DNA from: Bacteroidaceae bacterium
GTDB lineage: Bacteria > Bacteroidota > Bacteroidia > Bacteroidales > Bacteroidaceae
Direction of reading: 5' to 3'
Assembly: GCA_017451695.1 (NCBI GenBank)
Contig: JAFTNW010000006.1
Coordinates: forward strand, 1-64,000
Length of the DNA: 64,000 bases
Shown: positions 10,965-52,188 of the stretch, one piece after another
How the letters are laid out: the number at the start of each line of letters is the position of its first letter
Numbering within the stretch: the stretch's first letter is position 1
Notes under the pieces: model-generated
The model's database searches: none
The model's input: only the letters and a program-made list of their open reading frames with translations
What the model was told of the DNA's origin: nothing
Position numbers and translations under genes: made by a program

Positions 10965-11023
10965 TACTTTTTTTTCAACAATACACCTGTTTTTGCAATA
11001 TTTACCATGCAAATGAGCATATA

Positions 11024-11056: not shown

Positions 11057-11093
11057 ACCTACCTTATATATAATAATATGTGCCTGAAAAGGC

Positions 11094-11666: not shown

Positions 11667-11673
11667 ACTTTGT

Positions 11674-12108: not shown

Positions 12109-12866
12109 TATTTGAAAGCGTCGATTATACCTTTGAAATCGGCAACCTTGAGAGCAGCACCACCGATGAGACCGCCATCCACGTTGGGGTTGGCGAAGAG
12201 CTCTTTTGCATTGCTGGGTTTGCAGCTACCGCCATAGAGGATTGAAGTGTTCTCGGCTACCTCGTTGCCATACTTCTCGGCAATGGTAGAACGGATGTAT
12301 GCATGAATCTCCTCGGCCTGCTCGGGAGTGGCAGTGAGGCCTGTACCGATAGCCCAAACGGGCTCGTAAGCCAAGATGATTTTTGAGAAATCCTCGGCAG
12401 AGAGGTCGTAGAGCGAGCCTGCAAGCTGGCTGTAAACAACCTGATTCTGGATACCCTGCTCGCGCTCCTCTTTTACCTCACCGATACAGAAGATGGGGGT
12501 AAGACCGTTGGCAAGAGCAAGCTGCACTTTCTCTTTAAGAATCTCGGCTGTCTCGCCGTAATATGCACGACGCTCAGAGTGTCCAAGGATTACATACTTT
12601 GCACCTGTAGATGCCACCATAGATGCAGAAACCTCACCTGTGTATGCACCCGATACTTTGTCGGCGCAGTTCTCGGCACCCACACCAATGATTGATGAAT
12701 CCACGATGGGAGCCACCGATGCAAGGTGGATGAAGGGTGTGCAGATTACTACATCGCAGTTGGGTTTGTCGGCTGTCAAAGCCTCGTTGAGCTCTTTTGC
12801 AAGAGCAATGCCCTCTTGAAGATTCATGTTCATCTTCCAGTTACCGGCAACAATGTTCTTTCTCAT
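12108..12866 (-). CDS. tpiA: Triosephosphate isomerase
   Basis: Interconverts dihydroxyacetone phosphate and glyceraldehyde 3-phosphate. The 252-residue TIM barrel has all catalytic landmarks: the lysine in GNWKMN, the histidine in ILGHSERR, the glutamate in [11 protein letters not shown] with loop 6 following, and the phosphate-binding YGGSCKPSN and GGLIGGAAL. It is cytosolic and is co-transcribed with a DoxX gene upstream and a SPOR gene downstream. Confidence 0.98.
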
Positions 12867-12900
12867 TTTAATTAAATTTTAAGGGTTTATATAATTTATA

Positions 12901-14208
12901 TCACTCGTTTTCTTCATCATCCGATGGGAATGCAGCCTCGCTATCTCTTTTTTTGGGCGCCGCGAACATATCTATAAAAAGAATCAACGCCATAGGTATG
13001 GCAAACAACAGCAACCAGAAACGCCAACCGCGCATCACCTTTACATAATTGTCGAACACACCCTCCTGTAACAGCGACAACGAGTTGCCCGACATGGTAT
13101 CTACAGCGGGCACATCGGCTATATTCCATTTTTCCACAACCACGCCATCTTTCAGGAGCAACAATCCCGGATTGGCTCGTACTGCGGTTTTGAGCATATC
13201 ATTATCGGCCCAATAGGTGGGATATTCGGCACCGGTACGCTTGCGCCACAGCGCCAAAGCCTCCTCGCTCGACGATGTAGCGGCATAGAAAGGCAGGTGG
13301 TGTTCCGTGCAATAGTCGTATAGGTCGTTTATCTTATCGACACGGCTCTCATCGGCTCTCTCCACCGACTCAATCACAAGCAGCGCCACATAACCCGGGT
13401 CGGCAAGAATATCCTCGGCAATATCGTAGTCGGTGGCAAGGTCTATGAACGAGAAATTGCTTACTGCTGCCGGACGGGCCGGTGCAACAAGCCTGTTGCG
13501 ACTGCCTATATAACTCCATGTACTGTCGGGCAGGGCATCGGTGGCAAATTCGCGTTGCTCGCCACCCTTCTCGTACACCGCCACAGCCTCGTACTGCGAC
13601 GGCACATCCTCCACCGCCTCGCGTAAATTGGTACCTATTGCAAAAGGACGGAAATCTATAACCGGCAGATGCTGCAAGCTCATACCCTCCACAAGCACCG
13701 TGTAAATGAGAATAAAAATCACCGCCGCCCAGCGGCTGCTACGGCTTATGCAACGGCGATACAGCGAAGTGTTGAAACAGACCACAGCCGCCATGAGCAG
13801 GAGAAAAATATTCTTCACAAAAGTCTCTTGATTGGTCAGTTCCAGCGCATCGCCAAAGCAACCGCACACCGATACAGGATTCTCCAACCACAGATATAAC
13901 GAGAACGGGGTATAAAAAAGCATCGCTACGAATGTGAGCACCGCCACCGGCTTGCGATATATACCGGTGAGCAGAAAGAAACCCATGACGAACTCCACCC
14001 CCACAATGACAATGGCAAAAAAGAGCAGCCACGCATCGGAAAAGGTTGTTATATCAAACGCCACAGCATACTCCTTCAACTTGTAGAAAAAGCCCATGGG
14101 ATCGACAGCCTTTACAAAGCCCGATACCATAAACATAATTGCCAACAACACGCGACAAGCGTTTGTGAGCAACGTTGTGAGCAATATTTTCTTAGTTGGC
14201 GATACCAT
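12901..14208 (-). CDS. DoxX-family membrane protein with C-terminal soluble domain
   Basis: A 435-residue inner-membrane protein. The N-terminal third is DoxX-like, with about four membrane spans (for example LLAIMFMVSGFVKAVDPMGF and AIVIVGVEFVMGFFLLTGIY) and the motif VCGCFGDALELTNQETFVKN. A further span lies near residue 165. The middle and C-terminal part (about 185-390) looks like a periplasmic thioredoxin-fold domain without a CxxC pair, followed by a last membrane span and an acidic tail (SDDEENE). DoxX proteins are linked to redox or oxidative-stress roles; no precise reaction can be given. It overlaps the upstream DUF1599 gene by 17 bases. Confidence 0.8.
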   Translation of the reverse strand: MVSPTKKILLTTLLTNACRVLLAIMFMVSGFVKAVDPMGFFYKLKEYAVAFDITTFSDAWLLFFAIVIVGVEFVMGFFLLTGIYRKPVAVLTFVAMLFYTPFSLYLWLENPVSVCGCFGDALELTNQETFVKNIFLLLMAAVVCFNTSLYRRCISRSSRWAAVIFILIYTVLVEGMSLQHLPVIDFRPFAIGTNLREAVEDVPSQYEAVAVYEKGGEQREFATDALPDSTWSYIGSRNRLVAPARPAAVSNFSFIDLATDYDIAEDILADPGYVALLVIESVERADESRVDKINDLYDYCTEHHLPFYAATSSSEEALALWRKRTGAEYPTYWADNDMLKTAVRANPGLLLLKDGVVVEKWNIADVPAVDTMSGNSLSLLQEGVFDNYVKVMRGWRFWLLLFAIPMALILFIDMFAAPKKRDSEAAFPSDDEENE

Positions 14209-14737
14209 TCTTTATCAAGCCAAACACAGCATAGTTTATCATATCCATATAGTTGGCATCAACACCCTCGGACACCTGTGTAGCACCGTCGTGCTCCTCT
14301 ATCTGCTTTGTGCGCCAAATTTTGGTGAGGATAAGGTCGGTGTACGAAGTAGTGCGCATACCGCGCCACGCCTCGTTATAGTCGTGGTTCTTCTTTTTCA
14401 TGAGTTCGAGAGTGGTCTGTGCCTTCTTGTCGTAGAGGGCCATAGCCTCGTCGGGCGAGAGGTCGCAATGGTCGGCAAAACCGAGGTCGAGCTGCACAAG
14501 GGCTATTATTCCATAATTTACAATTCCTATAAGTTCAGAATTTATATCCTCACCCACAAGATTCTCTGCACCGGTTTCAAGAGTGCGTATACGCTTTGCC
14601 TTTATAAAAATCTGGTCGGTGAGCGACTGTGGGCGCATTATGCGCCACGACGCACCATAGTCATATAGTTTTTTACTGAACAGCTCGCGACAAACGGCGA
14701 GCACCTTTTCAAATTCCTTGTTTGTATCGTTTGCCAT
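14192..14737 (-). CDS. DUF1599 protein
   Basis: A 181-residue cytosolic protein made of two similar halves. Both contain a YGxxWRxMRPxSxTDxIxxK-type motif: YGASWRIMRPQSLTDQIFIK near residue 28, and YNEAWRGMRTTSYTDLILTK near 118. This internal repeat is the hallmark of DUF1599, a family thought to be linked to nucleotide modification; the biochemical function is not established. It is translationally coupled to the DoxX gene and is 18 bases after the GT2 gene. Confidence 0.85.
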   Translation of the reverse strand: MANDTNKEFEKVLAVCRELFSKKLYDYGASWRIMRPQSLTDQIFIKAKRIRTLETGAENLVGEDINSELIGIVNYGIIALVQLDLGFADHCDLSPDEAMALYDKKAQTTLELMKKKNHDYNEAWRGMRTTSYTDLILTKIWRTKQIEEHDGATQVSEGVDANYMDMINYAVFGLIKNGIAN

Positions 14738-27773: not shown

Positions 27774-30700
27774 ATGATTATGAGAAAATTCCTTTCAGCA
27801 ACATTGATTGCTTTGATGGCATTACTGCCATCTATGGTGCAGGCAAAGGTTACACACCTGTTGCCCAAGCCACATTCAGTAACCATGGGTGAAGGAGCAG
27901 CATTTGCGCTTGGGCGCAAGGTTACCATAACCGATGAAACCGGTTGCGTGGCACTGCAAAAATTCTTCACAGAAAACAATTGTACCATTGGCGATGGTGG
28001 TGCAACAGTTAAAGTAACCATTGTTGAAAGCATCCAGGGTGCTCACGACTACACCCTCGAAGGTTTTGACAACGAGGCATACACCCTCACTGTTACAGCC
28101 GATGCTATTGAGATTACAGCCGTAAAACCCGTGGGTGTTATCCGTGCTGCACAAACACTTGCACAGCTTGCCGAGGGATATGAAAACACCGCTGCCGTTG
28201 AGGCCGTTACTATAAAGGATTGGGCCGCATTCAAACTGCGTGGCTATATGCACGATGTGGGCCGTTCGTTCATTGAGGTGGAGACACTGAAAAAGCATAT
28301 CGACCTGTTGTCGCGCTTCAAGGTAAACTGTTTCCATTGGCATTTTACCGAGAACCAGGCATGGCGTTTTGAGGTAGAGGGCTACCCAGCACTCACATCA
28401 GCCGAGTCTATGACACGCTTTGCAGGCAAATACTATACACAGGAGGAGTGCAAGGAGGTTGCCACATATGCCAAGGAGCGCGGTGTGATAATAATCCCCG
28501 AGATTGATATGCCCGGCCACAGCCAAGCCTTTGTACGCGCAATGGGTTATGACATGCAGACCGACGAGGGCGTGGAGGTACTCAAGAACGTCCTCACCCA
28601 GGTGGCATCGATATTCCCCGATGCTCCCTACATACACATCGGTGCCGACGAGAAAAGTATAACATATCCCAACTTCCTCTCAATAATGACCGACCACATT
28701 CACGGCTTGGGCAAGAAGGTGGTTGTGTGGAACCCCATCAGCGGTGTAAATGTGAGCAACACCGATACCGACATGACACAGATGTGGAGCAGCAGCGGCA
28801 ACAAGATTACAGGCCGCCCCAACATCGACTGCCGTTACAACTATACCAACCACTTCGACGTATTTGCCGACGTTGTAGGTATCTACCGCAGCAACATATA
28901 TTACGTGGAGCAAGGTAACACCGAGGTAGCCGGCACCATTTCGGCATATTGGAACGACCGCAAGACACCCACCGAGACCGATATTGTAAAGCAGAACAAT
29001 ATGTATGCCAACGTAATAGCAAGTGCCGAGCGTGCTTGGTGCGGCGGGGGCAAGCAGTATATTGAAACCGGCGGTACAATGCTGCCCAACAGCGGCGATG
29101 AATATGAGGAGTTTGCCGATTGGGAGCGCCGTTTCCTATTCCACAAGGCCAACTCGCTCAAAGGCGAGCCCATCCCCTATGTAAAGCAGACCAATGTCCG
29201 CTGGCGCATAACCGACGCCTTCCCCAATGGCGGTAACGCCTCTACCGTATTCCCGCCCGAAGAAGCCGGTATAAGCGCAAGCACCGCGCTGCTCGACGAG
29301 AGTTACGAATACAACGGTGCAACATACTACACCGGCATGGCCACCGGAGCCGGCATATATCTGCGCCACACATGGGGAAACAACACAATACCCACATATT
29401 ATGGCAGCACCAACCACAGCAACAGCACCGCATACGCATGGACATACGTTTATAGCGAGAATGGTGGCAAGGTTGGAGCAAACATAGAGTTCCAAAACTA
29501 TGGTCGTAGCGAGGTGGACACTGCACCCAACAACGACAATTGGGACCGCAAAGGCTCCAACATATGGATTAACGGTGAGCGCGTAACACCCCCCACTTGG
29601 ACAAACGCAGGCAAGAGCATTAGCCACGAAGTAGATTTGGGCAACGAAAACTTTACAGCTCGCGAGCCCATAGAAGTAACACTGAATGCAGGGTGGAACA
29701 AGGTATTCATCAAACTGCCTTATGTAAGTGCCGGCGGAGTGCGCCTGAACAAATGGATGTTCACCTGCGTGTTTACCGACCTTGAGACAGGCGAAGCAGC
29801 CGACCTGATCTACTCACCCAACAAATGCATGGATGAGACAACCGAGCTTGTTGCAGCCAAGGTAAGCGAGATAAAGCGCGACCGCGGAGCCTATATAGGC
29901 ACAAACGTGGGCCAATGGCCTGCGAGTGCGGCGGCAACAATCGATACCAAGATTGCCGAGATTGAAGCTACATACTCTACAACAATGACCGAGGATGAGC
30001 GCACAGCACAGATAACAGCACTCAATGAGGCATGGAACACATTCACCGCTTCGCTCACCGCAAGCAACATGAACCAACCCATAGCAAGTACCGACGAAAA
30101 GGCCACATACTACCGCATGTGTACACCATTGCGTGGCAACCGCTACCCCACATCGTATGGCGCAGGCAATGCCATTGTAGGTGAGACCACCACAACCAAT
30201 GCCAATGTGTGGAAATTCGTTACCCGCACCGACGGTACATTTGATATTATAAATGCAAAGGACAACACATACATCTCGCCCGCAAGCAGCAACAATACCG
30301 CGCTGAACAGCGTTGCCACACAACCCTCGGCCGGCTGGACAATAAAACCTGCCGACGAAACAGGCTACGTTATAATCACCAGCGGCAATGTGCAGTTCAA
30401 TCAAACCAACAACAGCACACTCGGATTCAAGGTGTATAACTGGGGTAGCGGCACAAACACAAGCGACACCGGTTGCAAATATCAGTTTGTCGATGTTACC
30501 GCAACATATTCGCCCGACGATGCAGTGGGCGAAGCTACCACAAATGCCGATAACATAAACATCTACGGATTGCAGAAATACTTCGGCCTTGTGAAGGATG
30601 GAGCATACTACACCTGTAATTTCCCAGCAAGCACAAGCCAGGAGAATGGCAACTCCACAGCCAACATGCTAGACAATGTAAACACAACATTCTTCCATAG

Positions 30701-33700
30701 CGGCTACGACGGCACCCGTGGCGATGGCACAGCTCACTATCTGCAAGCCGACCTTGGCAAGAAGGTCAAGGAGTTCCGTTTCTACTTCAAGAAACGCAGC
30801 CAGAACAACAACAACCGCCCCACAAACATTGTGATTGCGGGCTCTAACGATGGCTCCGATTTTACAACCATAAAAACCGTAAGCAGCGGATTCCCAACCA
30901 ATGCCAATGTTGCCGACTACTACTCGGACAAGATTGCATGCACAGGCTACCGCTACATCCGATTCACAATAAAACAGACCAATACCGATACAAGCAGCAG
31001 CAACCCCTTCTTCACCTTCTCAGAGTTCTACATACTCCCCAACAACAACAAGGTGGAAGAGACCTTTACCGCTGTGAAGGATTGGCGTGCGGCAAGCGAA
31101 AAGACCGTTGAGCTGGCAAATGCCATTAACGAGGCATACGATTTTAACAACGCCCTCACAAACGGTGTACCTGCCGACGGCGGCGAGTACACGCTATACA
31201 GCGATACATACCAAAACGGAGCATATGTAAACCGCTACCTATATAACAACAACGGTACACTTGCCCTCTCTACCACAACCGACGAGAGCAACGACGCATA
31301 CATATGGGTGGCTACTGAGACTGCCGAAGGACAATTTACATTTGCCAACAAAGCCGGTAAGTATCTTGCCCACAAAGCTATAGCCAACGAGGCTTATAAC
31401 TTCACCGTGGGTACCACCAATACCTACCACATGGGTGTAACACTATACTCCATTGGTGCAAGCCGCTACTTTGTTGTGAAGAACGATGGTACATCATTCG
31501 ACCAATCGACAACCACATACAACCAAACAAATGGACAATGGTGTACCGATTTTGTATTCGTGCCCACCAACCTATTCGAAGGCTACAACAGCCTTACCAT
31601 TGAAAGCAACGCACCCATGGCAGGCGGTGTGTTTACATGGAACGATATAGAGATTGACGATGCACCCATATATGTAAATGATGGAGAAGCCGTTGCAAAC
31701 AGCACACTTGCTCTTAAAGAGTGCGACCCCGCATATAAGTTCGTAGGTTTCTACAGCGATGCCAACTATACCACATTGCTTGGAACAACACACGAAATAA
31801 GCGAGATTACAGCCAATACCACAATCTATGCAAAATTTGCACTCGACATATTCTCGACCTCATTGGATGAAGCTGTTCCCGTGCAGATTTACAACAACCG
31901 CAGCAAGAACTACGACATACGCCTTAACACAGCCGACAGCTACAGCGGACACACAGTGAACAGCGCTGCAAGCACATACGGTGAGGGCGAGGTGTGGTAC
32001 CTTGTGGGTAACGAAAGCTCGTTCAAGCTATACAACCGTGTGGCAGGCGAAACACTTGCTGTGAAACTTGCAGGCACAAGTAGTGGTTCGGCAGCTACCA
32101 TGGTGGCAGCAGCAAGCGCCACCAATCTATGCATCACACAGCAGAGCAACGGCAGCTATGGCATATCGCCTGTGGGCACAACAGGCCAGAGCTTTAACAT
32201 GCACGGTGGCGACGGACACGACATCAAGCTATATGCCACAAGCGACGGCGGCAGCACATGGTGCTTCAGAAAGCTCAACAGCAAGCCTTTGAACGTAAAC
32301 TACACCACATCGTTTGACGGCGGTTACGAGAACAACACCCGCATTGGCAGCCTTGCCATTAACATAAATGGCGCAACAAGCAACATCAACCTCACACAGC
32401 AGACCGTGCTCGATGCACAGGAACTCTATCTCCCCGTGGGTGCCACATACAGCATGGCAGCAGGCACACTCTACCGCGGTTGGAAGATTGAGTTCAACGG
32501 CGAGCAGTCTATCCCCGAGCAGATTGTACCCGAGAATGGTGCAGATGTATCGGTAACAGTGGCAGTGGACGAGGATAACAAATACCAATACATCTACTAC
32601 TCGAACGATGCAAACGGCAAGCCATATCGCATCCCCGCCATCGCAACAGCACCCAATGGTACAGTATTTGCGATTTCGGACAACCGCCCATGCGGTAGCG
32701 ATATTGGTTACGGCGAAGTGGACATCAAGTGCCGTATATCTAATGACAACGGCGAAACATGGGGCGAAGAGTTCTTTATTGCAAACGGCGATGGTGGCAG
32801 CACCAACGTAATGAAAACCGGCTATGGCGATGCAGCCATTGTAGCCGACCGCGAGCAGAACAAACTGCTGGTAATGATGGTGTGTGGCCGCACAGTATGC
32901 TGGAATGGCCGCTGGCACCCCGACTCAACAGCAACATCGAGCAATATCAACCGCGTTGCCCGCGTATATGCTACATACAACGAAGAGACAAGCGAGTGGG
33001 AGTGGACAGAGCCCGTAGAGGTTACAAACAGCATCTACTCTAAGTTCCTCAAAAACGGAGTACCCACGGTATCGTCATTGTTCATAGGTTCGGGCCGTAT
33101 ATGCCAGAGCAGCAAGGTGAAGGTGGGCGACTACTACCGCATCTACTGCTCGGTGTGGACACGCGACAACGGAAACCGCGTAATCTACTCCGACGACTTT
33201 GGTGGCAGCTGGAATGTACTTGGTGGCGTAGATGCCCGCCCTGCAACCGGTGGCGATGAGCCCAAGATTGAGGAGCTTGCCGACGGAACAATCGTACTCA
33301 GCAGCCGTAAATCGGCAGGCCGTTACTTCAACATATTCAAGTTTACCAACTTGGAGACTGCCGAAGGCTCATGGGGCAGCGTAGCATCGAGCAACGATGT
33401 AAGCAACGGATTGAGCTATGGTGCAAACAGCACCAACGGCGAGATTATGCGCATCAAGGCCGTGCGCAAGAGCGACAACACCGTATGCGATGTGATGTTG
33501 CAGTCGGTACCCTGCGGCAACGGCCGTCGCGACGTTGGAATCTTCTACAAAGAGATGGTTTATGGCGAGAACGATGTAAATGTTTACACCCCCACCACCT
33601 TCTCGCAAGGATGGACAAAGGGACTTGCCGTTACCGACAAGGAGTCGGCCTACTCAACCATGACATTGCAGAAGGATAACCGCATAGGTTTCTTCTACGA

Positions 33701-33929
33701 GGAGGTGCCCAACGGCTACTGCATGGTATATGTACCACTCACATTGGAGGAGATAACAAACGACGAGTACTCTGTATATGTGGACCCTACAACCGGCGTT
33801 GATGCAGTAATAGCCGACAAGACCTATGAAGATGCATCTATATACGACCTTTCGGGGCGCAAGGTAAACAACATTACCCAAAGCGGTATATATATAATAG
33901 GTGAAAAGAAGGTTATCATAAGTAAATAA
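27774..33929 (+). CDS. GH20 hexosaminidase-GH33 sialidase fusion, T9SS cargo
   Basis: A 2051-residue secreted enzyme with a signal peptide (about 1-24). Order of parts: GH20 accessory region (25-145), GH20 barrel (about 148-460) with the catalytic pair D292-E293 in HIGADE, a beta-rich region, a FIVAR-like helical piece (about 690-770), a lectin-like region, an F5/8-type-C-like domain (about 940-1090), a further beta region, a GH33 sialidase (about 1618-1995) with YRIPAI and Asp boxes SNDNGETW and SDDFGGSW, and a C-terminal T9SS sorting domain (IYDLSGRKVNNI to the end). It should remove terminal sialic acid and N-acetylhexosamines from host glycans at the cell surface. The start could be M1 or M3. 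It is followed by a terminator, then a fucosidase gene with its own promoter. Confidence 0.9.
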   Translation: MIMRKFLSATLIALMALLPSMVQAKVTHLLPKPHSVTMGEGAAFALGRKVTITDETGCVALQKFFTENNCTIGDGGATVKVTIVESIQGAHDYTLEGFDNEAYTLTVTADAIEITAVKPVGVIRAAQTLAQLAEGYENTAAVEAVTIKDWAAFKLRGYMHDVGRSFIEVETLKKHIDLLSRFKVNCFHWHFTENQAWRFEVEGYPALTSAESMTRFAGKYYTQEECKEVATYAKERGVIIIPEIDMPGHSQAFVRAMGYDMQTDEGVEVLKNVLTQVASIFPDAPYIHIGADEKSITYPNFLSIMTDHIHGLGKKVVVWNPISGVNVSNTDTDMTQMWSSSGNKITGRPNIDCRYNYTNHFDVFADVVGIYRSNIYYVEQGNTEVAGTISAYWNDRKTPTETDIVKQNNMYANVIASAERAWCGGGKQYIETGGTMLPNSGDEYEEFADWERRFLFHKANSLKGEPIPYVKQTNVRWRITDAFPNGGNASTVFPPEEAGISASTALLDESYEYNGATYYTGMATGAGIYLRHTWGNNTIPTYYGSTNHSNSTAYAWTYVYSENGGKVGANIEFQNYGRSEVDTAPNNDNWDRKGSNIWINGERVTPPTWTNAGKSISHEVDLGNENFTAREPIEVTLNAGWNKVFIKLPYVSAGGVRLNKWMFTCVFTDLETGEAADLIYSPNKCMDETTELVAAKVSEIKRDRGAYIGTNVGQWPASAAATIDTKIAEIEATYSTTMTEDERTAQITALNEAWNTFTASLTASNMNQPIASTDEKATYYRMCTPLRGNRYPTSYGAGNAIVGETTTTNANVWKFVTRTDGTFDIINAKDNTYISPASSNNTALNSVATQPSAGWTIKPADETGYVIITSGNVQFNQTNNSTLGFKVYNWGSGTNTSDTGCKYQFVDVTATYSPDDAVGEATTNADNINIYGLQKYFGLVKDGAYYTCNFPASTSQENGNSTANMLDNVNTTFFHSGYDGTRGDGTAHYLQADLGKKVKEFRFYFKKRSQNNNNRPTNIVIAGSNDGSDFTTIKTVSSGFPTNANVADYYSDKIACTGYRYIRFTIKQTNTDTSSSNPFFTFSEFYILPNNNKVEETFTAVKDWRAASEKTVELANAINEAYDFNNALTNGVPADGGEYTLYSDTYQNGAYVNRYLYNNNGTLALSTTTDESNDAYIWVATETAEGQFTFANKAGKYLAHKAIANEAYNFTVGTTNTYHMGVTLYSIGASRYFVVKNDGTSFDQSTTTYNQTNGQWCTDFVFVPTNLFEGYNSLTIESNAPMAGGVFTWNDIEIDDAPIYVNDGEAVANSTLALKECDPAYKFVGFYSDANYTTLLGTTHEISEITANTTIYAKFALDIFSTSLDEAVPVQIYNNRSKNYDIRLNTADSYSGHTVNSAASTYGEGEVWYLVGNESSFKLYNRVAGETLAVKLAGTSSGSAATMVAAASATNLCITQQSNGSYGISPVGTTGQSFNMHGGDGHDIKLYATSDGGSTWCFRKLNSKPLNVNYTTSFDGGYENNTRIGSLAININGATSNINLTQQTVLDAQELYLPVGATYSMAAGTLYRGWKIEFNGEQSIPEQIVPENGADVSVTVAVDEDNKYQYIYYSNDANGKPYRIPAIATAPNGTVFAISDNRPCGSDIGYGEVDIKCRISNDNGETWGEEFFIANGDGGSTNVMKTGYGDAAIVADREQNKLLVMMVCGRTVCWNGRWHPDSTATSSNINRVARVYATYNEETSEWEWTEPVEVTNSIYSKFLKNGVPTVSSLFIGSGRICQSSKVKVGDYYRIYCSVWTRDNGNRVIYSDDFGGSWNVLGGVDARPATGGDEPKIEELADGTIVLSSRKSAGRYFNIFKFTNLETAEGSWGSVASSNDVSNGLSYGANSTNGEIMRIKAVRKSDNTVCDVMLQSVPCGNGRRDVGIFYKEMVYGENDVNVYTPTTFSQGWTKGLAVTDKESAYSTMTLQKDNRIGFFYEEVPNGYCMVYVPLTLEEITNDEYSVYVDPTTGVDAVIADKTYEDASIYDLSGRKVNNITQSGIYIIGEKKVIISK

Positions 33930-34246: not shown

Positions 34247-35773
34247 ATGAAATCAAAATTTTTACCCTTGCTATTCGGGCTTGGTTTTGCAGCGATGCCG
34301 CTGAGCAACTACGCACAAGCCGAATTCCAAGTTGTTGAGGCCGCTCCTGCGAACCCCGACAACGAACCCCATCCCGTGCATCCCGTGCCACACGAGCGCC
34401 AAGTTCTGTGGAACGAAACCGAGTTCTATGCCTTCTTCCATTATGGTATAAATACATACACAAACAAAGAGTGGGGCTATGGCGACGAGAATCCCAACCT
34501 CTTTGCCCCCACAGCCGTGCCCAACCCCAAACAGTGGCTCGAGGCAGCCAAGAGCGCAGGCATGAAGGGCGGTATTGCCGTTGTTAAACACCACGACGGA
34601 TTCTGCTTGTGGCCCACAGCCACCACAACACACAACGTAACAGCATCGAGCAACGCCAATGCACAGGCAACAAATATCCCCAAAGATTTTGCCGCAGCAG
34701 CAAAGGAACTCGACATGAAATATGGTTTCTACGTATCGCCGTGGGACCGCAACAGCGGCTACTATGGCGACGGCACAAACAACTATGTAGAGAAGCTCTT
34801 TATTCCCCAATGTAAAGAGCTCGCAGCATATGGCAGCGACCAATTTGAAATGTGGTTCGACGGTGCAAACGGTGGCGACGGCTTCTACGGTGGCGCACAA
34901 CAACACCGCAAAATCGATGCAAGCACATACTACGACATACCCAACCTGCGCTATGAGGTTCACCAAATGTGCCCCAACTGCGTAATGTGGGGTGTGGGCG
35001 ACGAGGCGCGCTGGATAGGCAACGAGGCAGGCTGGGCCGGTGAAACCAACTGGCAGACACAGAACCGTGGTCGCGGTGCCGGTGACAATACCGAAGGTGC
35101 CGAGAACGGTTGGATATGGCTTCCGGGTGAGAGCGATGCCAAGGCCACAACAAAAGGATGGTTCTGGCACGAGGGAGAGGGCATTCACTCGGCAGAGCGT
35201 CTTTTCCAGATGTACTTGGAGACTGTTGGCCGCAACGCCACACTTATTCTTAACTTGCCCCCCGACAAGAGTGGTTCACTGCCCGCAGCCACCGTTAACC
35301 GCATGAAGGAGCTCGGCAATATGTTAAGTTCACGCTTTGCAACCGACCTTGCAAAAACCGCCACCGTAACAGTATCGAGCACTCGCACAGCAGGCGAAAA
35401 GCGCAACTATGAGGCAACCAACATCAACGACGATGACAAGACCACATATTGGGCAGCACCCGATGGCACAAACAGCGCAACCATTACTTTTGAGTGGAAC
35501 GAGGCTCAAACCATACGCTACGTATCCATGATGGAGTACATAAGGCTGGGACAGCGCGTTAAGAGCTTTACCATAGAGACATCCGAGGACGGTGCCACAT
35601 GGACCAAGCGTGGCGGCGACATCAAATGCACCACCATTGGTTACAAGCGTATAATCCCCTTGAACGGCAGCACAAGCAACAGCTACGGCGACGGCTATAG
35701 CGCAAAATATCTGCGCATAACCATCAACGACAGCAAGGCCTGCCCCACATTGCACACAGTAAGCATCTTCTAA
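34247..35773 (+). CDS. GH29 alpha-L-fucosidase
   Basis: A 508-residue exported enzyme with a signal peptide (ends near NYAQA). The GH29 barrel (about 40-345) includes ETEFYAFFHYGINTYTNKEWG, the substrate-histidine segment VVKHHDGFCLWP, and the nucleophile D205 in FEMWFDGANGGDG. A C-terminal F5/8-type-C-like carbohydrate-binding domain (about 355-508) ends the protein. It would remove terminal fucose from mucin-type glycans. Unlike the flanking cargoes it has no T9SS sorting domain, so it should stay periplasmic or be released otherwise. It is 13 bases upstream of the next gene and surely co-transcribed. Confidence 0.92.
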   Translation: MKSKFLPLLFGLGFAAMPLSNYAQAEFQVVEAAPANPDNEPHPVHPVPHERQVLWNETEFYAFFHYGINTYTNKEWGYGDENPNLFAPTAVPNPKQWLEAAKSAGMKGGIAVVKHHDGFCLWPTATTTHNVTASSNANAQATNIPKDFAAAAKELDMKYGFYVSPWDRNSGYYGDGTNNYVEKLFIPQCKELAAYGSDQFEMWFDGANGGDGFYGGAQQHRKIDASTYYDIPNLRYEVHQMCPNCVMWGVGDEARWIGNEAGWAGETNWQTQNRGRGAGDNTEGAENGWIWLPGESDAKATTKGWFWHEGEGIHSAERLFQMYLETVGRNATLILNLPPDKSGSLPAATVNRMKELGNMLSSRFATDLAKTATVTVSSTRTAGEKRNYEATNINDDDKTTYWAAPDGTNSATITFEWNEAQTIRYVSMMEYIRLGQRVKSFTIETSEDGATWTKRGGDIKCTTIGYKRIIPLNGSTSNSYGDGYSAKYLRITINDSKACPTLHTVSIF

Positions 35774-35786
35774 AAACCGAAACACC

Positions 35787-38700
35787 ATGAAAAAAAATAA
35801 ATATATATCGTTCTTGGCTGCTATGGTATTGCCCTTTGCAGCTATGGCACAGAGCATAACATTCGACACCGACGAGGCCGAATATAAAGCCATTGGTGTT
35901 TACGACACATGGGAGAAATCTCCCTTCCGCACAGGAGAACTGACAGGCCGCACTGCGGTAGTAACAAACCATCTGAACCAAGTAGATGACCTGCTGGGCG
36001 AAGCAGCCAATGCCACAGGCAAGATGCTTGCTGTGCAACGCTCACGCTTCGGCAGTAACACATTCGGTGTGCGCATAGACCTCAACGAGCCCATTGACTT
36101 GACACCTGCAGCAAAGTATGTGCATGCTCTTATTCACAAACCCGTGGCAGGCCGTGTGATGCTTGTGGGACTTGGCAAGCGCAATGACCGCCCCGAGCAG
36201 CCACAGACCGTTGAGCAATTCTGGGAGCTGGCATCGGTGGACTTTGTTGCCAACAAATGGCAGGATGCCGTATTCACCATAAAGGGTGCAGGCAACATAA
36301 GCATATACAGTCTTGTATTTGTGGTGGATTGCGAATCGCCCCACAATCTGACAGAAGATTTTATTGCATACGTCGATGAGATAGAGGTAAACAACAGCCC
36401 CGTACAACGTATTGTTTATACCGACTATGCTCTGAATTTTGAAAAAAATGCACAGAGCACACACGGCTCACGCTGGATTAAGAGCATTGCATTCAACGGC
36501 TCGGCCGATGGCAACAAGAGCATTACCCTTAACACAGCAAGCAACAAGCAGATGTACTACGACATGACAGAGGGTGCTATGTTCACAGCCAAAGCAGGCG
36601 AAACCATCACCCCCACATTTACAATGAATGGTAACTGGATGAACGGTTATGTTTATCTTGACCGCGGCAACGATGGTCGCTTCCACGCAACACTGAACGA
36701 CGACCTCACAATCCCCGAGGGCTCCGATGTTATGACATATTCATTCTACTCCGGCAGCAGCAATGACAGCAACGGTGTTAATAGTAATGGCGATGCATTA
36801 ACAGGCTCCGCACGCAATGTACTCAACCCACCGACCTTCAAAATACCCACCGACCTTCAAAACGGCATCTACCGTATGCGTTACAAGATTGACTGGAACA
36901 GCATTGATCCGGGCGGCAATACCCTTGCGGGCAACACCATTGCCAGCAATGGCGGTGCCATCGTTGATGTACGCCTGAATATACACGGCGAAACAACTAC
37001 AATCACGGCACACCAACGTAACTGCGAGCTAATATCGGCAGAGACGGGCGAAGGACTTGGCGGAACCGTGGTACCTTATGGCAAGGGATACAAGATAAAG
37101 GTTGTCCCCTCGGGTGGCTTTGCATACCGCGGTGTAACCGTTGTTCACGGCTACAACATTGTGATTGATGCCAACCAGGATTACGCAATTACCAGCGAGC
37201 AGTATGTGCATGGTACAAAGCAATACTCTATCGACTATATTCCCGCAGCTATGTTCGATGAAAACGACGAATATACAATCCCCGCAGAGTATATCGACGG
37301 CGAGGTACACGTTATTGCCGATGTAATTTCGGGTTACAGCGTAAGATACAACCACCTACTCAATGGCGAGGTGGCAAACACCGAGGTACTCATAACCACC
37401 AATGGCACATACCCCGCACCCACACAACCATGGGGTATCACTTTGAGTGGGGTGCCCACAGGCTCCGTTACCGAAAACTGTGTTAAGGATATTACAGCAA
37501 CCTTTGATAGCAGCGTGCTCCCTTTTTCGGCAGCAAGCAGCTACGGCGAAATAGATAGCTGGTACTACATGACACTTAATGGCAAGTACCTCTTCTACGA
37601 GCAGGGTGCAACATCCATACCCCTAAACAAGCAGGCCGTGGATACATCCAACAAGGATGCATACACATTTGCCTTTGTAGGCAACCCCTACAGCGGCTAC
37701 CAGATTGTAAACCGCGCTGCAGGTGAGGGATACATCCTATCATCTTCAACCACCATGCTTGGTGAAACAGGTGCCAACACCTACCCTGTGATGACTGCAA
37801 CACCCGTACCCGATGGTAACAACATCTATTGGAACCCCAGCAGCAGCACACACGCAACAGGCGGATTCTACTTGGAGCAGAAAGGCCACAGCAGCAACAA
37901 ATTGAACAACCGTGAAAATAAGATGGCCTATTGGACAGCAGGCTATGGAGCAGGCTCAACACTCACCGTTACCCTGAGAGAGACTGGTAAATTGGGTGAA
38001 ATCGCCGACCTTATCGATGAAATAGACACAAAAGGCATACAACCCGGTACCGACCCCGGTTACTATACAGAGGCTACATACGCCACACTTGCACAGGCCA
38101 TTGAAAATGCAAACGGGCTTAGCAACGAAAGCAGCGACAGCGAGGTTGAAGATGCCAAAACCGCTATAAACGACGCGCTTGGAGCACTTGCAACCGCCCA
38201 ACCCGTAAAAGGCAACTACTACATTATAAAAAGCGCCTACCCTAACTGGAGCACAGGCGACAAGGCCATGTATAGCAACGGAACAAATACCATGTGGAAG
38301 GATGCCGACTACACCGATAAATCCTTCTATTGGCTTCTCGAGGATATCGTAAACGGCAAATACATCTTCAAGAACGCAAGCGACTCCAAGTATATGAACG
38401 GACAATCCATGAGCGATACCAAACCCTCAACAGGTGCCACACTCACATGGTTGGACGTAGCGGGCCAATACAACATTATATCGAATAATGTAACAATGCA
38501 CACCGAGGGACACAGCAGCGGTGCAGGCGAGAGTGGCCGCATCGTATCGTGGGGCGGTGGCGCAAACGGTTGCTCTGCTTGGTATCTGCTCACAGCCGAT
38601 GAGCCCACAGCAAGCGGCACTGTAAATGTAACATACACATATACAAACAACGGCAACACTTGGAGCACCGAGCAAAAGACACTGAATGTAAACACCCCAT

Positions 38701-39443
38701 ACACAGCTGCAACAGCAGCCTATGGTGCCGATGCTTCGGGCACAGCCGGCTACGGCCTTGTTCGCAACACACAAAATGCAATTAACATCTACTGCACATT
38801 GAATGGTGAACTGCCCTTTGAATTTGAGGAGGATTGGAACGACGAAGGCAAGTGGTATTACATCACACTCGATACTCGCAACAACTACTACCTGAAACAC
38901 ACAGAGGGCCAAACAGGAATGCCTTTGAACCAAAAGACTCTGCCCGCAGACGAGAGCGAGCTTGATTATTATACATTTGCATTCATAGGCAACCCCTATC
39001 TTGGTTACAAGATTGTGAACTACGCCGCGGGTGAGGGTATGATTCTCTCATCGTCCACCACCATGAGTGGCAGCAACGGCGGCAGCACACGCCCCGTAAT
39101 GATGGACGAGAACTCATTGCCCGCAGACCATAACACCTATTGGGTTCCAACAAGCAGCACATATGCCACAGGCGGTTTCTACTTGGAACAGATGGGTTAC
39201 AGCAACAACAAGATGAACCTGCGCGACGGCTACCTTGCATATTGGTCCACAGGCAAGGACATGGGCTCTACATTCATAGCAACAGAGCGCATTATGGAGG
39301 GTACAGCTACCGGCATAGACGAAATCGTTACCGATGCCGACAGACAGCAAGATGGAATATACGACCTTGGCGGTCGCCGCATAAAGGAGATAACCACAAA
39401 GGGTATCTACATTATAAACGGCGAAAAGGTTATAGTTGAGTAA
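35787..39443 (+). CDS. Large non-catalytic T9SS cargo, probable glycan-binding protein
   Basis: A 1218-residue secreted protein, signal peptide 1-21, ending in a T9SS sorting domain (IYDLGGRRIKEITTKGIYII). No glycosidase motif was found. An N-terminal beta-sandwich-like region (about 22-200) is followed by a region with YVYLDRGNDGRFHATLNDD. Two copies of one module lie at about 590-730 and 1021-1165, each with WYYxTL, YTFAFxGNPYxGYxIVN, AAGEGxILSSSTTM and ATGGFYLEQ. Between them is a FIVAR-like helical piece (about 745-805) and a beta-trefoil-like region. FIVAR and lectin-like modules and the fucosidase partner suggest binding of host glycans; this is inference. Confidence 0.75.
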   Translation: MKKNKYISFLAAMVLPFAAMAQSITFDTDEAEYKAIGVYDTWEKSPFRTGELTGRTAVVTNHLNQVDDLLGEAANATGKMLAVQRSRFGSNTFGVRIDLNEPIDLTPAAKYVHALIHKPVAGRVMLVGLGKRNDRPEQPQTVEQFWELASVDFVANKWQDAVFTIKGAGNISIYSLVFVVDCESPHNLTEDFIAYVDEIEVNNSPVQRIVYTDYALNFEKNAQSTHGSRWIKSIAFNGSADGNKSITLNTASNKQMYYDMTEGAMFTAKAGETITPTFTMNGNWMNGYVYLDRGNDGRFHATLNDDLTIPEGSDVMTYSFYSGSSNDSNGVNSNGDALTGSARNVLNPPTFKIPTDLQNGIYRMRYKIDWNSIDPGGNTLAGNTIASNGGAIVDVRLNIHGETTTITAHQRNCELISAETGEGLGGTVVPYGKGYKIKVVPSGGFAYRGVTVVHGYNIVIDANQDYAITSEQYVHGTKQYSIDYIPAAMFDENDEYTIPAEYIDGEVHVIADVISGYSVRYNHLLNGEVANTEVLITTNGTYPAPTQPWGITLSGVPTGSVTENCVKDITATFDSSVLPFSAASSYGEIDSWYYMTLNGKYLFYEQGATSIPLNKQAVDTSNKDAYTFAFVGNPYSGYQIVNRAAGEGYILSSSTTMLGETGANTYPVMTATPVPDGNNIYWNPSSSTHATGGFYLEQKGHSSNKLNNRENKMAYWTAGYGAGSTLTVTLRETGKLGEIADLIDEIDTKGIQPGTDPGYYTEATYATLAQAIENANGLSNESSDSEVEDAKTAINDALGALATAQPVKGNYYIIKSAYPNWSTGDKAMYSNGTNTMWKDADYTDKSFYWLLEDIVNGKYIFKNASDSKYMNGQSMSDTKPSTGATLTWLDVAGQYNIISNNVTMHTEGHSSGAGESGRIVSWGGGANGCSAWYLLTADEPTASGTVNVTYTYTNNGNTWSTEQKTLNVNTPYTAATAAYGADASGTAGYGLVRNTQNAINIYCTLNGELPFEFEEDWNDEGKWYYITLDTRNNYYLKHTEGQTGMPLNQKTLPADESELDYYTFAFIGNPYLGYKIVNYAAGEGMILSSSTTMSGSNGGSTRPVMMDENSLPADHNTYWVPTSSTYATGGFYLEQMGYSNNKMNLRDGYLAYWSTGKDMGSTFIATERIMEGTATGIDEIVTDADRQQDGIYDLGGRRIKEITTKGIYIINGEKVIVE

Positions 39444-48834: not shown

Positions 48835-51800
48835 ATGAAACGATTCAAAACCGTAAACAACACCCTCGGTTGGCTCATTTTTATCATTGCAGCAGCTACA
48901 TACTGCCTCACAGTGGAGCCTACCACAAGTTTTTGGGATTGCCCCGAGTTTATACTCTCGGGCTATAAATTGGAGGTGGGACACCCACCCGGCGCCCCCT
49001 TCTTCATGCTTACAGCAAACTTTTTCTCACTCTTTGCCGAGCCGCAGAACGTAGCCCTCATGGTAAACTACATGAGTGCTGTTTTAAGTGCAGGCGGTAT
49101 TCTGTTCCTCTTTTGGAGCATCACACACCTCACACGCAAACTCATTGCAGGCAACAGCAAGGATATTTCCACATCGCAACTTATCACAATAATGGGAGCC
49201 GGCATTGTGGGCTCGCTTGCATACACTTGGAGCGACACATATTGGTTCAGCGCCGTGGAAGGAGAGGTGTACGGCTATTCATCGCTCTTTACAGCCGTGG
49301 TATTCTGGCTCATACTCAAATGGGAGGAGCATGCCGACGAACCCCGCAGCGACCGTTGGCTGGTGCTCATAGCCTACCTCACAGGCCTCTCCATCGGAGT
49401 GCACCTTCTGAACCTGCTTTGTATCCCCGCCATTGTGCTTGTGGCATACTACAAACGCACACCAAATGCCAACCTTAAAGGTTCAATGCTGGCACTCCTT
49501 GCATCGGCAGCACTTGTTGCCATAGTGCTATACGGCATTGTGCCCGGCGTTGTAAAAGTAGGCGGCTGGTTCGAGCTGCTCTTTGTAAACACCATGGGGT
49601 TGCCATTTAACACAGGCCTCATAACATATATAGTTCTCCTGTGTGCCGCACTTATATGGGGACTCATAGAGAGCGAAAAGGGCAAGAGCCGCAAGAAACT
49701 TGCCATTGCATTTGTGGCATCGGTAGGATTGCTTGGTATCCCCTTCTACGGATATGGAGTATTAAGCGTTATCATGGGTATAGCGGTGCTTGTTGCACTT
49801 TTCTTTGCTGCCATTTATCGCAAGGGAGAAAAATACATTATGAACCTGCGCATGTTCAACACATCGTTGCTATGCATGCTGGTTATCATGATTGGATACT
49901 CCTCGTATGCGCTAATCGTGGTGCGCTCGGCAGCAAACACCCCCATGGACCAGAACTCGCCCGAGGATATCTTCACACTCGGTGCATACCTGGGCCGCGA
50001 GCAGTATGGCAAACGCCCGCTCCTCTATGGCCAGGCATATAGTTCGGAGCTTGAACGCGAGCCCAAAGGACAATATTTAGTGGCAAAGACAACGACAGGC
50101 GCCCCCAAATATGCTCCCAAGGAGAAAAGCAACCCCGACGAAAAAGACTCTTACGAGATAGTGGGATATGACAAGGATTATATCTTTGCCACAAACATGC
50201 TGTTCCCCCGCATGCACAGCATGGAACACGGCAGCTACGGCCCCAATAAGATAAATCTATACGCACAATGGTGCGGTGGCGAAATCAAGGGACACAACGT
50301 GCGCTACAAGACATCGTGGGGCGAAACCATGAATGTGATGATGCCCACACAGTTCGAGAATCTCCAATTCTTCATAAACTACCAGCTGAACCACATGTAT
50401 TGGAGATATTTCCTGTGGAACTTTGTAGGAAGACAGAACGACCTGCAAAGCCACGGTGAATTCGAAAAAGGCAATTGGATTACCGGAATCTCGTTTATCG
50501 ACAACATATTGGTGGGCAACCAGGATACATTGCCGTCGGTACTTAAAGAGAACAAGGGACGCAACGTATTCTATGCCCTGCCACTAATACTCGGTATAAT
50601 GGGAATGGTGTGGCAGGCACGCCGTGGCAAAGAGGGCTCGCAGCAGTTCCTCATAGTATTCATGCTCTTCTTTATGACCGGTATTGCCATTGTGCTATAC
50701 CTGAACCAGACACCTCTGCAACCGCGTGAGCGCGACTATGCCTATGCCGGCTCGTTCTACGCATTTGCAATATGGATAGGCATGGGTGTTGCCGCAATAA
50801 CCGAATGGATAAGAAAGAAGAACACCGCCATAAGCACCGCCGTAGCCATTGCATGCATGCTTGTACCCGTTCAAATGGTATCGCAAACATGGGACGACCA
50901 CGACCGAAGCGGCCGTTACGCTTGCCGCGACTTTGGCCAGAACTACCTTGCATCTATCCCCGAGGAGGGCAACCCCATAATATTCACCTGCGGCGACAAC
51001 GACACATTCCCCTTGTGGTACACGCAGGAGGTGGAGGGAGTGCGCACCGATGCACGCGTTTGCAACCTGTCGTACCTGCAAACCGATTGGTACATCGACC
51101 AGATGCGCCGCCCCGCATACGACTCGCCGTCAATCCCCATAAAATGGGATAGAATAGACTATGCGGGCACAGCCAACGATGACATAGAGATAAGACCCGA
51201 GGTAAGGGAATACATAGAATCGGTTTACGCCGAGAACCCCGAGGGCGCAAAAAGACGCTTTGGCGAGAACCCCTTCGAGGTGAAGAACATAATGAAAAAC
51301 TGGGTATGCTCGCGCAACGAAAAGTTGCACTACATCCCCACCGATACGCTATACATTGAGATTGACCCCGAGGCTGTAATACGTTCGGGCATGATAATAC
51401 CGGCAGAGTATGCCGACTCCATGCCACGATACATGAAAATATCGCTTGCAGGAAAAAGATCCATCACCCGTTCGGACCTCATGTTGCTCGAGATGCTCTC
51501 GCAGTGCAATTGGGAACGCCCCTTGTATATGTCCATGACAGTGGGTGAGGAGAACTATTTGAGTTGCCTTAAAGACTTCTTTGTGCACGAAGGACTTGCA
51601 TACCGCATCACACCATTCAATTGGGTGGAGCTTGGTTACAGCAGAGGCAAATCGATAGTTATAGATACGGAGAAGTTCTATAACAATGTGATGAACCGTT
51701 TCAAGTTCGGCGGGCTCAAGGAGAACCCCGACTACTATTCCGACGAGACCATCAGCCGCATGATATACACCCACAGACGAGTGATAAGCTCACTCGCCAG

Positions 51801-52188
51801 CGAGCTATACAACGAGGGAAGCAACGAAAAGGCATTGAACCTGCTCAACCTGATGGAAGAGGAACTGCCCGCAAGCATTGTACCCCACACCGCCATGGCT
51901 GACGGCATAGATATCGGCCGCCTATACATAGCTTTGGGCGAATACAACAAAGGAATCGAAATATTAGGCAAGCTTATAGAGGAGCAGTTCGAATATATCA
52001 ATTGGTACAGCAGCATGAGCGACAGACACTTTACTGCAACAATACAAGAGAGCTATATGGCAATAGAGTTGGCCAAACTCACCATTGACGAACTTAAAAA
52101 AGGCAATGAGACATGCAAAGCCGCCGCAGCCGACTACAATAAAGAACTATCTGCATTGTTCGAAGTGTGGAAGCAACGCATCGATTAA
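48835..52188 (+). CDS. DUF2723 membrane protein, O-mannosyltransferase-like
   Basis: A 1117-residue protein. The N-terminal half is a multi-span membrane region that opens with the DUF2723 signature LTVEPTTSFWDCPEFILSGY, KLEVGHPPGAPFF and YTWSDTYWFSAVEGEVYGYS. That family is related to GT-C protein O-mannosyltransferases that use lipid-linked sugars. The C-terminal half (from about residue 690) is soluble and probably periplasmic, with FTCGDNDTFPLWY and a final helical repeat region. A polyprenol-phosphate-sugar donor could come from the GT2 at 14756 (inference). It heads a transcript with a deacetylase and queG. Confidence 0.85.
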   Translation: MKRFKTVNNTLGWLIFIIAAATYCLTVEPTTSFWDCPEFILSGYKLEVGHPPGAPFFMLTANFFSLFAEPQNVALMVNYMSAVLSAGGILFLFWSITHLTRKLIAGNSKDISTSQLITIMGAGIVGSLAYTWSDTYWFSAVEGEVYGYSSLFTAVVFWLILKWEEHADEPRSDRWLVLIAYLTGLSIGVHLLNLLCIPAIVLVAYYKRTPNANLKGSMLALLASAALVAIVLYGIVPGVVKVGGWFELLFVNTMGLPFNTGLITYIVLLCAALIWGLIESEKGKSRKKLAIAFVASVGLLGIPFYGYGVLSVIMGIAVLVALFFAAIYRKGEKYIMNLRMFNTSLLCMLVIMIGYSSYALIVVRSAANTPMDQNSPEDIFTLGAYLGREQYGKRPLLYGQAYSSELEREPKGQYLVAKTTTGAPKYAPKEKSNPDEKDSYEIVGYDKDYIFATNMLFPRMHSMEHGSYGPNKINLYAQWCGGEIKGHNVRYKTSWGETMNVMMPTQFENLQFFINYQLNHMYWRYFLWNFVGRQNDLQSHGEFEKGNWITGISFIDNILVGNQDTLPSVLKENKGRNVFYALPLILGIMGMVWQARRGKEGSQQFLIVFMLFFMTGIAIVLYLNQTPLQPRERDYAYAGSFYAFAIWIGMGVAAITEWIRKKNTAISTAVAIACMLVPVQMVSQTWDDHDRSGRYACRDFGQNYLASIPEEGNPIIFTCGDNDTFPLWYTQEVEGVRTDARVCNLSYLQTDWYIDQMRRPAYDSPSIPIKWDRIDYAGTANDDIEIRPEVREYIESVYAENPEGAKRRFGENPFEVKNIMKNWVCSRNEKLHYIPTDTLYIEIDPEAVIRSGMIIPAEYADSMPRYMKISLAGKRSITRSDLMLLEMLSQCNWERPLYMSMTVGEENYLSCLKDFFVHEGLAYRITPFNWVELGYSRGKSIVIDTEKFYNNVMNRFKFGGLKENPDYYSDETISRMIYTHRRVISSLASELYNEGSNEKALNLLNLMEEELPASIVPHTAMADGIDIGRLYIALGEYNKGIEILGKLIEEQFEYINWYSSMSDRHFTATIQESYMAIELAKLTIDELKKGNETCKAAAADYNKELSALFEVWKQRID

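What the first reader, a model, noticed from the sequence alone, without database searches (positions are those of the whole stretch)
35787..39443. 1218-residue T9SS protein with a duplicated, unrecognised module
Two copies of a roughly 140-residue module (about residues 590-730 and 1021-1165) share WYYxTL, GNPYxGYxIVN, AAGEGxILSSSTTM and ATGGFYLEQ. I do not recognise the module as a named family. Its place with a fucosidase and FIVAR pieces suggests a new glycan-binding module, perhaps for fucosylated mucin.
Basis: partly seen in the sequence, partly recalled or inferred. Interest (0 to 1): 0.5.

Follow-up and report, generated by a model that had tools for sequence, protein, structure and literature searches.

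The report
Lectin-bearing partner of a bacterial fucosidase
The repeated, unnamed module is a distant cousin of the sugar-binding domain of ricin, and it sits on a secreted protein whose other end is found, in every case examined, right next to one type of fucose-cutting enzyme in gut bacteria.

Summary
In detail: ORF 35787-39443 (+, 1218 aa) carries two copies of a ~142-residue module, 84 of 160 aligned columns identical, far above shuffles. The module is not a new fold. An AlphaFold2 model (pLDDT 94.1) is a beta-trefoil of the ricin-B/lectin kind (Z 15.8 over 127 residues), although no Pfam model finds the window copies. A third, more divergent beta-trefoil (806-945) lies between them. The module recurs in ruminant-hindgut Bacteroidaceae, on sialidases, hexosaminidase-sialidases and proteins like this one. 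A glycan-binding role is therefore likely; "fucosylated mucin" is not shown.

The stronger result lies at the N-terminus. Residues 22-205 ("N1") are predicted to be a jelly-roll CBM-like domain with no Pfam family. N1 genes lie directly downstream of a GH29+F5/8C fucosidase gene in 50 of 50 loci read. In 201 genomes the link is reciprocal: all 61 N1 genes have this GH29, all 61 GH29 genes scoring at least 428 bits have N1, and none of the lower-scoring GH29 genes does. The trefoils are an optional add-on. The protein most likely acts as a non-catalytic glycan-binding partner of an alpha-1,3/4-fucosidase, probably exported by the T9SS encoded next door.

The parts
35787..39443 (+). 1218-aa multidomain secreted protein (the finding); ATG 13 bases after the stop of the GH29 gene
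35787..35849 (+). Sec-type signal peptide, residues 1-21 (read by eye)
   Evidence: sequence; no signal-peptide predictor was available
35850..36401 (+). N1 domain, residues 22-205: predicted jelly-roll CBM-like domain, no Pfam family, always beside GH29
   Evidence: model (pLDDT mostly 45-85 here); fold match Z 14.2 to 8qx6; conservation; linkage
36432..37001 (+). GEVED-like domain, residues 216-405
   Evidence: PF20009 17.3 bits in P0001, below its 24.4 cut-off; 25.2 bits, above it, in the relative P0008
37002..37331 (+). N3 region, residues 406-515, beta-rich, conserved in many N1 proteins
37326..37556 (+). linker domain before trefoil 1, residues 514-590
   Evidence: pLDDT under 50 in the model
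37560..37985 (+). beta-trefoil module M1, residues 592-733
37989..38195 (+). FIVAR-like region, residues 735-803
   Evidence: PF07554 16.0 bits, below cut-off, on 760-801
38202..38621 (+). third, divergent beta-trefoil (Rc), residues 806-945
   Evidence: PF14200 in 11 of 12 homologues, best 2.1e-6, own copy 0.023; profile matches solved trefoils
38616..38849 (+). linker domain before trefoil 2, residues 944-1021
38853..39281 (+). beta-trefoil module M2, residues 1023-1165
39291..39440 (+). C-terminal tail, residues 1169-1218, conserved GIYDLxGRR...GIYIxNGKKVxVK; probable T9SS sorting signal
   Evidence: alignment; own tail not matched by TIGR04183 or Por_Secre_tail
34247..35773 (+). partner gene: GH29 fucosidase catalytic domain (res. 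63-361) plus F5/8 type C domain (res. 374-495), no C-terminal sorting tail
   Evidence: PF01120 104.2 bits, PF00754 47.3 bits; nearest solved structures include alpha-1,3/4-fucosidases; tails
27774..33929 (+). upstream GH20 - PF14200 trefoil - F5/8C - sialidase fusion, 2051 aa
   Evidence: same gene order in L032 and L033
39607..45510 (+). T9SS core genes PorP/SprF, GldK, GldL, GldM, GldN directly downstream
   Evidence: all five above their curated cut-offs

Best explanation
The 1218-aa protein is a non-catalytic, multivalent glycan-binding partner of the GH29 alpha-1,3/4-fucosidase encoded just upstream. Its N-terminal jelly-roll domain N1 is the conserved functional core of the partnership. 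The GEVED-like and linker domains are a stalk. The three beta-trefoils (M1, Rc, M2) are lectin-type modules added in this lineage to give avidity for host-type glycans such as LacNAc-, H- or Lewis-type chains on mucin or N-glycans. It is probably exported by the T9SS encoded next door, so that it concentrates substrate at the cell surface for the fucosidase and the neighbouring hexosaminidase-sialidase. Shown computationally: gene order, reciprocal linkage, duplication and homology. Predicted: the trefoil and jelly-roll folds. Inferred: glycan binding, ligand, export and partnership at the protein level.
For: M1 model pLDDT 94.1, pTM 0.89. Foldseek hits are trefoils, HA33 lectin at 2.1e-5; VIA Z 15.8, rmsd 2.5 over 127 to 1ups_A 289-420 and Z 15.3 to the ricin-B-like lectin MPL. 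PF14200 touches 4 of 17 module sequences, best 8e-4. Module relatives lie on GH33-like and GH20+sialidase proteins. N1 model matches a laminarin-binding CBM (8qx6, Z 14.2, 143 aligned, 21% identity), then CBM22, CBM4, CBM11, CBM30. GH29 directly upstream of N1 in 50 of 50 (19 ORFs in loci found by the trefoil, 21 ORFs in 20 hand-picked regions, 10 from other families). Reciprocity: 61 of 61 N1 and 61 of 61 GH29 at or above 428 bits in 201 genomes. No catalytic Pfam or NCBIfam domain in the protein. T9SS core adjacent. Precedent: MG1, two ricin-type trefoils joined by three helices, binds asialo long complex N-glycans and terminal alpha1,2-Fuc on an array (PMC10076258, section 9 read in full).
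Against: The trefoil fold also occurs in non-lectins among the same hits: fascin, IL-18, FGF mutants, a protease inhibitor. The sugar-binding residues of ricin-type lectins were not shown to be kept, and M1 lacks the literal QxW motif (it has YTF). MG1 showed no binding by ITC to the soluble glycans tested (PMC10076258). The own tail is not recognised as a T9SS signal. The minimal partners L079, L087 and L105 have no such tail, so surface export is not general. The N1 model is only moderately confident. EndoHS, Foldseek's top hit to the N-terminal model, aligns with rmsd of 12-20 A over many domains.
Confidence: 0.58

Rival explanations
1. N1 proteins are subunits, chaperones or anchors of the fucosidase: N1 binds the GH29 or its F5/8C domain rather than a sugar, and the rest of the protein is a replaceable delivery part.
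For: Linkage is reciprocal and independent of the trefoils; of the 31 N1 genes not found through the trefoil only L080 and L106 carry it. N1 alone (313-326 aa) is enough in L079 and L105. GH29 ORFs end at F5/8C with no sorting tail (0 of 52 ORFs, L081 split in two) while many partners have one. N1 is strongly conserved, mean column identity 56% in 25 diverse rows.
Against: The fold matches of N1 are CBMs, not protein-docking domains. No complex was predicted here. Distant tandem N1-like domains lie beside SusC/SusD-type genes and a CBM48 hit, without GH29 being seen there by our profile.
Confidence: 0.22
2. A mosaic surface adhesin or stalk protein of the fibrillar-adhesin kind (jelly roll, GEVED, repeats) that sticks cells to mucus; the fucosidase neighbour is merely co-regulated.
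For: N1 is followed by a GEVED-like domain, as ligand-binding NR2 is in CshA-type adhesins (passages of PMC10952558); Epf adhesin is among the Foldseek hits to the N-terminal model.
Against: Mere co-regulation does not explain 61-to-61 reciprocity in the family and the same pairing in other families. Minimal partners without stalk or tail exist (L079, L105).
Confidence: 0.12
3. N1 has an unrecognised enzymatic activity needed before or after defucosylation.
For: Jelly-roll folds also serve enzymes (HpiC1, 5wpp, is among the matches, Z 10.4; that it is a Stig cyclase is recalled); N1 has many invariant polar residues.
Against: No match to an enzyme family in Pfam or NCBIfam; the best structural match is a binding module.
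Confidence: 0.06

Closest known systems
Ricin-type beta-trefoil lectin domains (Pfam PF14200 RicinB_lectin_2; solved: MPL 4ion, HA33 5b2h)
   Same: predicted three-fold trefoil over the whole module (Z about 15); part of the family keeps a QLW-like repeat end
   Different: 6-17% sequence identity in the fold alignments; window copies score below any Pfam model; YTF instead of QxW in M1; conserved N-x-R and YW in the third repeat
MG1, a mucin-panned carbohydrate-binding protein of human gut metagenome (PMC10076258)
   Same: described as two ricin-type trefoils joined by a three-helix domain, like M1-FIVAR-Rc here; similar proteins from Prevotella-like organisms; no Pfam or dbCAN hit
Laminarin-binding CBM X584 (PDB 8qx6) and CBM22/CBM4/CBM11 jelly rolls
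   Same: predicted fold of N1 (Z 14.2, 143 aligned, 21% identity)
   Different: no detectable sequence-profile match; obligate GH29 neighbour
GH29 alpha-1,3/4-fucosidases with F5/8C domains (8ayr, 5k9h, 3ues)
   Same: partner gene P0003 is clearly of this kind
   Different: this subgroup has an N1 gene behind it; lower-scoring GH29 genes (384 bits or less) of the same family do not
CshA-type fibrillar adhesins (NR2 followed by GEVED, PMC10952558)
   Same: ligand-binding-like domain followed by a GEVED-like domain, then repeats
   Different: N1 not matched to NR2; host bacteria and probable export route differ; fucosidase neighbour

Membership tests
Ricin-type beta-trefoil (R-type lectin / PF14200) | beta-trefoil fold across the domain | tested here: met
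   AF2 model pLDDT 94.1 and trefoil matches throughout; predicted, not solved
Ricin-type beta-trefoil (R-type lectin / PF14200) | score above Pfam's curated cut-off | tested here: not met
   0 families for M1; relatives touch it weakly, 24.8 bits against 25.6 for P0007
Ricin-type beta-trefoil (R-type lectin / PF14200) | QxW motif in the repeats | tested here: inconclusive
   M1 has YTF at 627-629; in 47 aligned rows Q at that first column in 19 and W at the third in 39; motif definition recalled
Ricin-type beta-trefoil (R-type lectin / PF14200) | binds sugar | not testable with these tools
   needs glycan array or calorimetry
T9SS substrate | C-terminal sorting domain (TIGR04183 / PF18962) | tested here: inconclusive
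   own tail no match; 2 of 14 similar tails reach TIGR04183, best E 0.01; Pfam none
T9SS substrate | T9SS machinery in the genome | tested here: met
   PorP, GldK, GldL, GldM, GldN above cut-offs
GEVED domain (PF20009) | score above cut-off | tested here: not met
   17.3 against 24.4 bits in P0001; relative P0008 25.2, so GEVED-like only
FIVAR domain (PF07554) | score above cut-off | tested here: not met
   16.0 against 29.2 bits
GH29 fucosidase (partner gene P0003) | PF01120 above cut-off | tested here: met
   104.2 against 25.2 bits; solved alpha-1,3/4-fucosidase 3ues at 2.4e-65
Jelly-roll CBM (for N1) | beta-sandwich jelly-roll fold | tested here: met
   Z 14.2 to 8qx6, 11-12.5 to CBM22/CBM4 modules; prediction of moderate confidence
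Jelly-roll CBM (for N1) | sequence membership in a named CBM family | tested here: inconclusive
   no Pfam hit on N1 and no PDB profile hit; CAZy/dbCAN not available

The most novel reading that the evidence does not exclude
N1 defines an unnamed family of obligate partner subunits of one GH29 alpha-1,3/4-fucosidase subgroup. The partner both aims the enzyme at fucosylated host glycans and carries the tail-less, already folded fucosidase out through the T9SS in a piggyback complex, with lineage-specific lectin modules such as the trefoils bolted on as aiming parts.
Probability: 0.15. Interest if true: 0.75.

Novelty: new variant of a known kind. Interest (0 to 1): 0.5.

Why it matters
The trefoil is a divergent lectin-type module that Pfam misses although it is spread through gut Bacteroidaceae on host-glycan enzymes, so sialidase and fucosidase proteins of this group are under-annotated. 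The larger point is the fixed pairing of a fucosidase subgroup with an undescribed CBM-like protein. If the pair works as a unit, activity measured on the enzyme alone may miss half of the system, and fucose release from mucus or N-glycans by these bacteria has an untested second component. It also gives a simple experimental handle: two adjacent genes.

Tried and rejected
Rejected: a module of unknown fold (model and fold matches show a trefoil). Rejected: chance repeat. Rejected: viral spread, as far as tested (searches found no relative in viral contigs). Sequence search of the PDB with the module profile gave only two weak desuccinylase hits at E 0.06. N1 profiles gave no real PDB hit. Profile comparison of the module with the two other trefoil groups was weak (probability 17.7 and 1.8), while those two matched each other (87.0), so common descent of M1/M2 with Rc is not shown. 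The promoter scan found fewer sites than shuffles and covers sigma-70 sites only, so it says nothing here. The sialidase part of P0002 is named from NCBIfam NF052328, far below that model's own cut-off. In VIA lists a CshA NR2 structure was not seen among the rows shown; that excludes nothing.

Literature searches that found no description of a GH29 partner of this kind: (library of open PMC papers only; listings seen, and passages of two papers). Papers: PMC10076258 section 9 whole and passages; PMC12961652 passages; PMC10952558 passages; PMC8136628 passages; all others listing only.

Counting choices. The regions were hand-picked from the list, leaning to distant N1 genes and away from contig ends, before their content was seen. 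The 19 N1 ORFs of L032-L058 came from a trefoil search and are not an unbiased sample. In one search one pair (G067) lay 504 bases apart, outside the 400-base rule of the script, and is counted as paired by me; one lower-scoring GH29 row (G011, 261.9 bits) is the 5' half of a split gene whose 3' half is paired. The statement that lower-scoring GH29 genes lack N1 rests on the remaining 80 rows. N1 hits were taken at E 1e-8 and GH29 at 1e-60.
Full report
Observation. The ORF at 35787-39443 (+) encodes 1218 residues. The two regions align with score 415 and 84 identities in 160 columns, against a shuffled mean of 36 and maximum of 76. In the genome that holds the window (2.29 Mb, 51 contigs, 89% complete) the module occurs only in these two copies. 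A tree of 44 module rows groups the four first copies of this protein and its three closest relatives (96/89), and all eight first and second copies together (98/85), so the duplication happened inside this protein lineage.

What the module is. A 17-member family alignment of the module finds no credible solved structure by sequence, and Pfam gives nothing for M1 but touches RicinB_lectin_2 (PF14200) in 4 of 17 relatives, best 8e-4. The AlphaFold2 model from 47 rows has pLDDT 94.1 and pTM 0.89. Foldseek lists 73 matches at E 0.001 or better; the 50 shown are trefoil proteins, led by HA33 and a designed trefoil (that all listed proteins are trefoils is partly recalled). VIA-align gives Z 15.8 (rmsd 2.5, 127 aligned) to the C-terminal part of a GlcNAc-alpha-1,4-Gal endo-beta-galactosidase, 15.7 to an exo-beta-1,3-galactanase, 15.3 to the ricin-B-like lectin MPL. 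The same lists hold trefoils that are not lectins (fascin, IL-18, FGF variants), so the fold makes sugar binding likely, not certain. Among the most conserved residues in the family are several in the third repeat: N708, R710, W717, G724, S725 and D at the column of G722; whether they form a sugar site is inference.

A third trefoil. Residues 806-945 between the copies match PF14200 in 11 of 12 homologues (best 2.1e-6, own copy 0.023) and a profile of them finds solved trefoils, among them an agglutinin at 0.005 over 37-137. The protein thus reads: signal peptide, N1, GEVED-like, N3, linker, trefoil, FIVAR-like, trefoil, linker, trefoil, tail. The middle order (trefoil, helical FIVAR-like region, trefoil) is that described for MG1, a protein panned from human gut metagenome on mucin which bound asialo long complex N-glycans and terminal alpha1,2-fucose on an array but no soluble glycan by calorimetry (PMC10076258). 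I could not obtain its sequence, so this is a likeness of layout.

Where the module occurs. 112 of 399 genomes of the same family have it at E 0.001 or better, the window's own included. In named contigs 36 loci were found; by their titles nearly all are ruminant hindgut metagenome assemblies of Bacteroidaceae/Bacteroidales, with one Alloprevotella, one Prevotella and one Muribaculaceae record. By segment search it is attached to GH20+sialidase fusions (L033, L043, L059, L063), to sialidases without GH20 (L038, L039, L065; L046 also carries a sialidase segment and a short GH20_P2 match), to N1 proteins, and to proteins with no recognised enzyme. The sialidase name rests on BNR repeats (PF13088 above cut-off in P0006, P0007, P0010) and a sub-cut-off NCBIfam match.

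The N-terminal half. Residues 22-590 were modelled from 21 rows (pLDDT 73.8). Residues 22-205 (N1) match jelly-roll binding modules: Z 14.2 (143 aligned, 21% identity) to the laminarin-binding CBM X584, 12.5 to the xylanase Xyn10B, about 11 to CBM4 and CBM22 modules. N1 has no Pfam family. Among 25 diverse rows 22 columns are invariant. Residues 216-405 are GEVED-like: below cut-off here, above it in P0008.

The fucosidase link. In all 19 N1 ORFs of the trefoil loci the gene directly upstream is a GH29 with an F5/8C domain. In 20 further regions chosen by hand among distant N1 hits all 21 N1 ORFs have it (L081's GH29 is split), and in 10 regions from other families of the order all 10 have it: 50 of 50. 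Of the 31 N1 genes not found through the trefoil only L080 and L106 carry the trefoil. The converse was tested in 201 genomes of the family: 61 GH29 genes score 428 bits or more against the window's GH29 and all 61 have N1 downstream (60 within 400 bases, one at 504); the next GH29 scores 384 bits and none of the 80 lower rows has N1 (81 rows, one being half of a split gene already counted); all 61 N1 genes are accounted for. N1 was absent from the other 394 genomes of a phylum sample by single-sequence search. An order sample with the profile hit 23 of 393; the strong hits are the GH29 pairs, while weaker ones include tandem N1-like domains with a Por_Secre_tail above cut-off in 4 of 4 scanned, with a TonB-dependent receptor beside L111 and SusD beside L112. 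N1 therefore belongs with the fucosidase, and the trefoils look like later additions.

Export. PorP, GldK, GldL, GldM and GldN lie directly downstream. The tail of the protein has the pattern GIYDLxGRR...GIYIxNGKKV shared with many neighbours, but sorting-domain models do not recognise it. None of 52 GH29 ORFs has such a tail; apart from the split L081 they end at or within one residue of the F5/8C domain. Several minimal partners (L079, L087, L105) have none either. Where the fucosidase ends up is thus open, and a piggyback route is only a possibility.

Mechanism and verdict. Best supported: a non-catalytic glycan-binding partner of a GH29 alpha-1,3/4-type fucosidase (nearest solved relatives 8ayr, 5k9h, then 4zrx and 3ues), made multivalent in this lineage by three trefoils, probably at the cell surface, next to a hexosaminidase-sialidase. 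Shown: repeat, homology, gene linkage. Predicted: folds. Inferred: ligand, partnership, location. I found no description of the N1-GH29 pair in the searches named under Tried and rejected; that library is partial.

Noticed in passing
window 27774-33929: GH20 hexosaminidase, PF14200 trefoil, F5/8C and sialidase-like domains fused in one 2051-aa protein; in the homologue L033 a copy of the trefoil module stands at residues 961-1106.
   Followed up: partly
L032:11288-11722: In this relative the second module is 72% identical to the window's first module, while the other second modules are 54-56%; this hints at gene conversion between the copies.
   Followed up: no
L067:1481-3832 and 2-1372: Muribaculaceae proteins with shorter (~115 aa) relatives of the module joined to dockerin type I and, in one, an FGE-sulfatase domain.
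   Followed up: no
L111:3883-5202, L112:3717-5024, L113:3049-4980, L114:3111-5057: Distant tandem N1-like domains with a recognised T9SS tail; a TonB-dependent receptor follows in L111, a SusD gene precedes in L112, and L113 also has a CBM48 hit.
   Followed up: partly
L043:3283-8856 and 8939-14512: The same 1858-aa hexosaminidase-sialidase gene appears as an inverted pair in one contig; possibly an assembly palindrome.
   Followed up: no
L081:5166-6894: The GH29 gene is split over two frames (frameshift or assembly error) while its N1 partner is open.
   Followed up: no
G000 contig C34, L068:2559-6702: The window's genome has a second GH29-N1 pair (N1 protein 868 aa, no trefoil module); of three GH29 genes in the genome two have N1.
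   Followed up: partly
window 48835-52188: 1117-aa ORF after PriA with no NCBIfam match.
   Followed up: no
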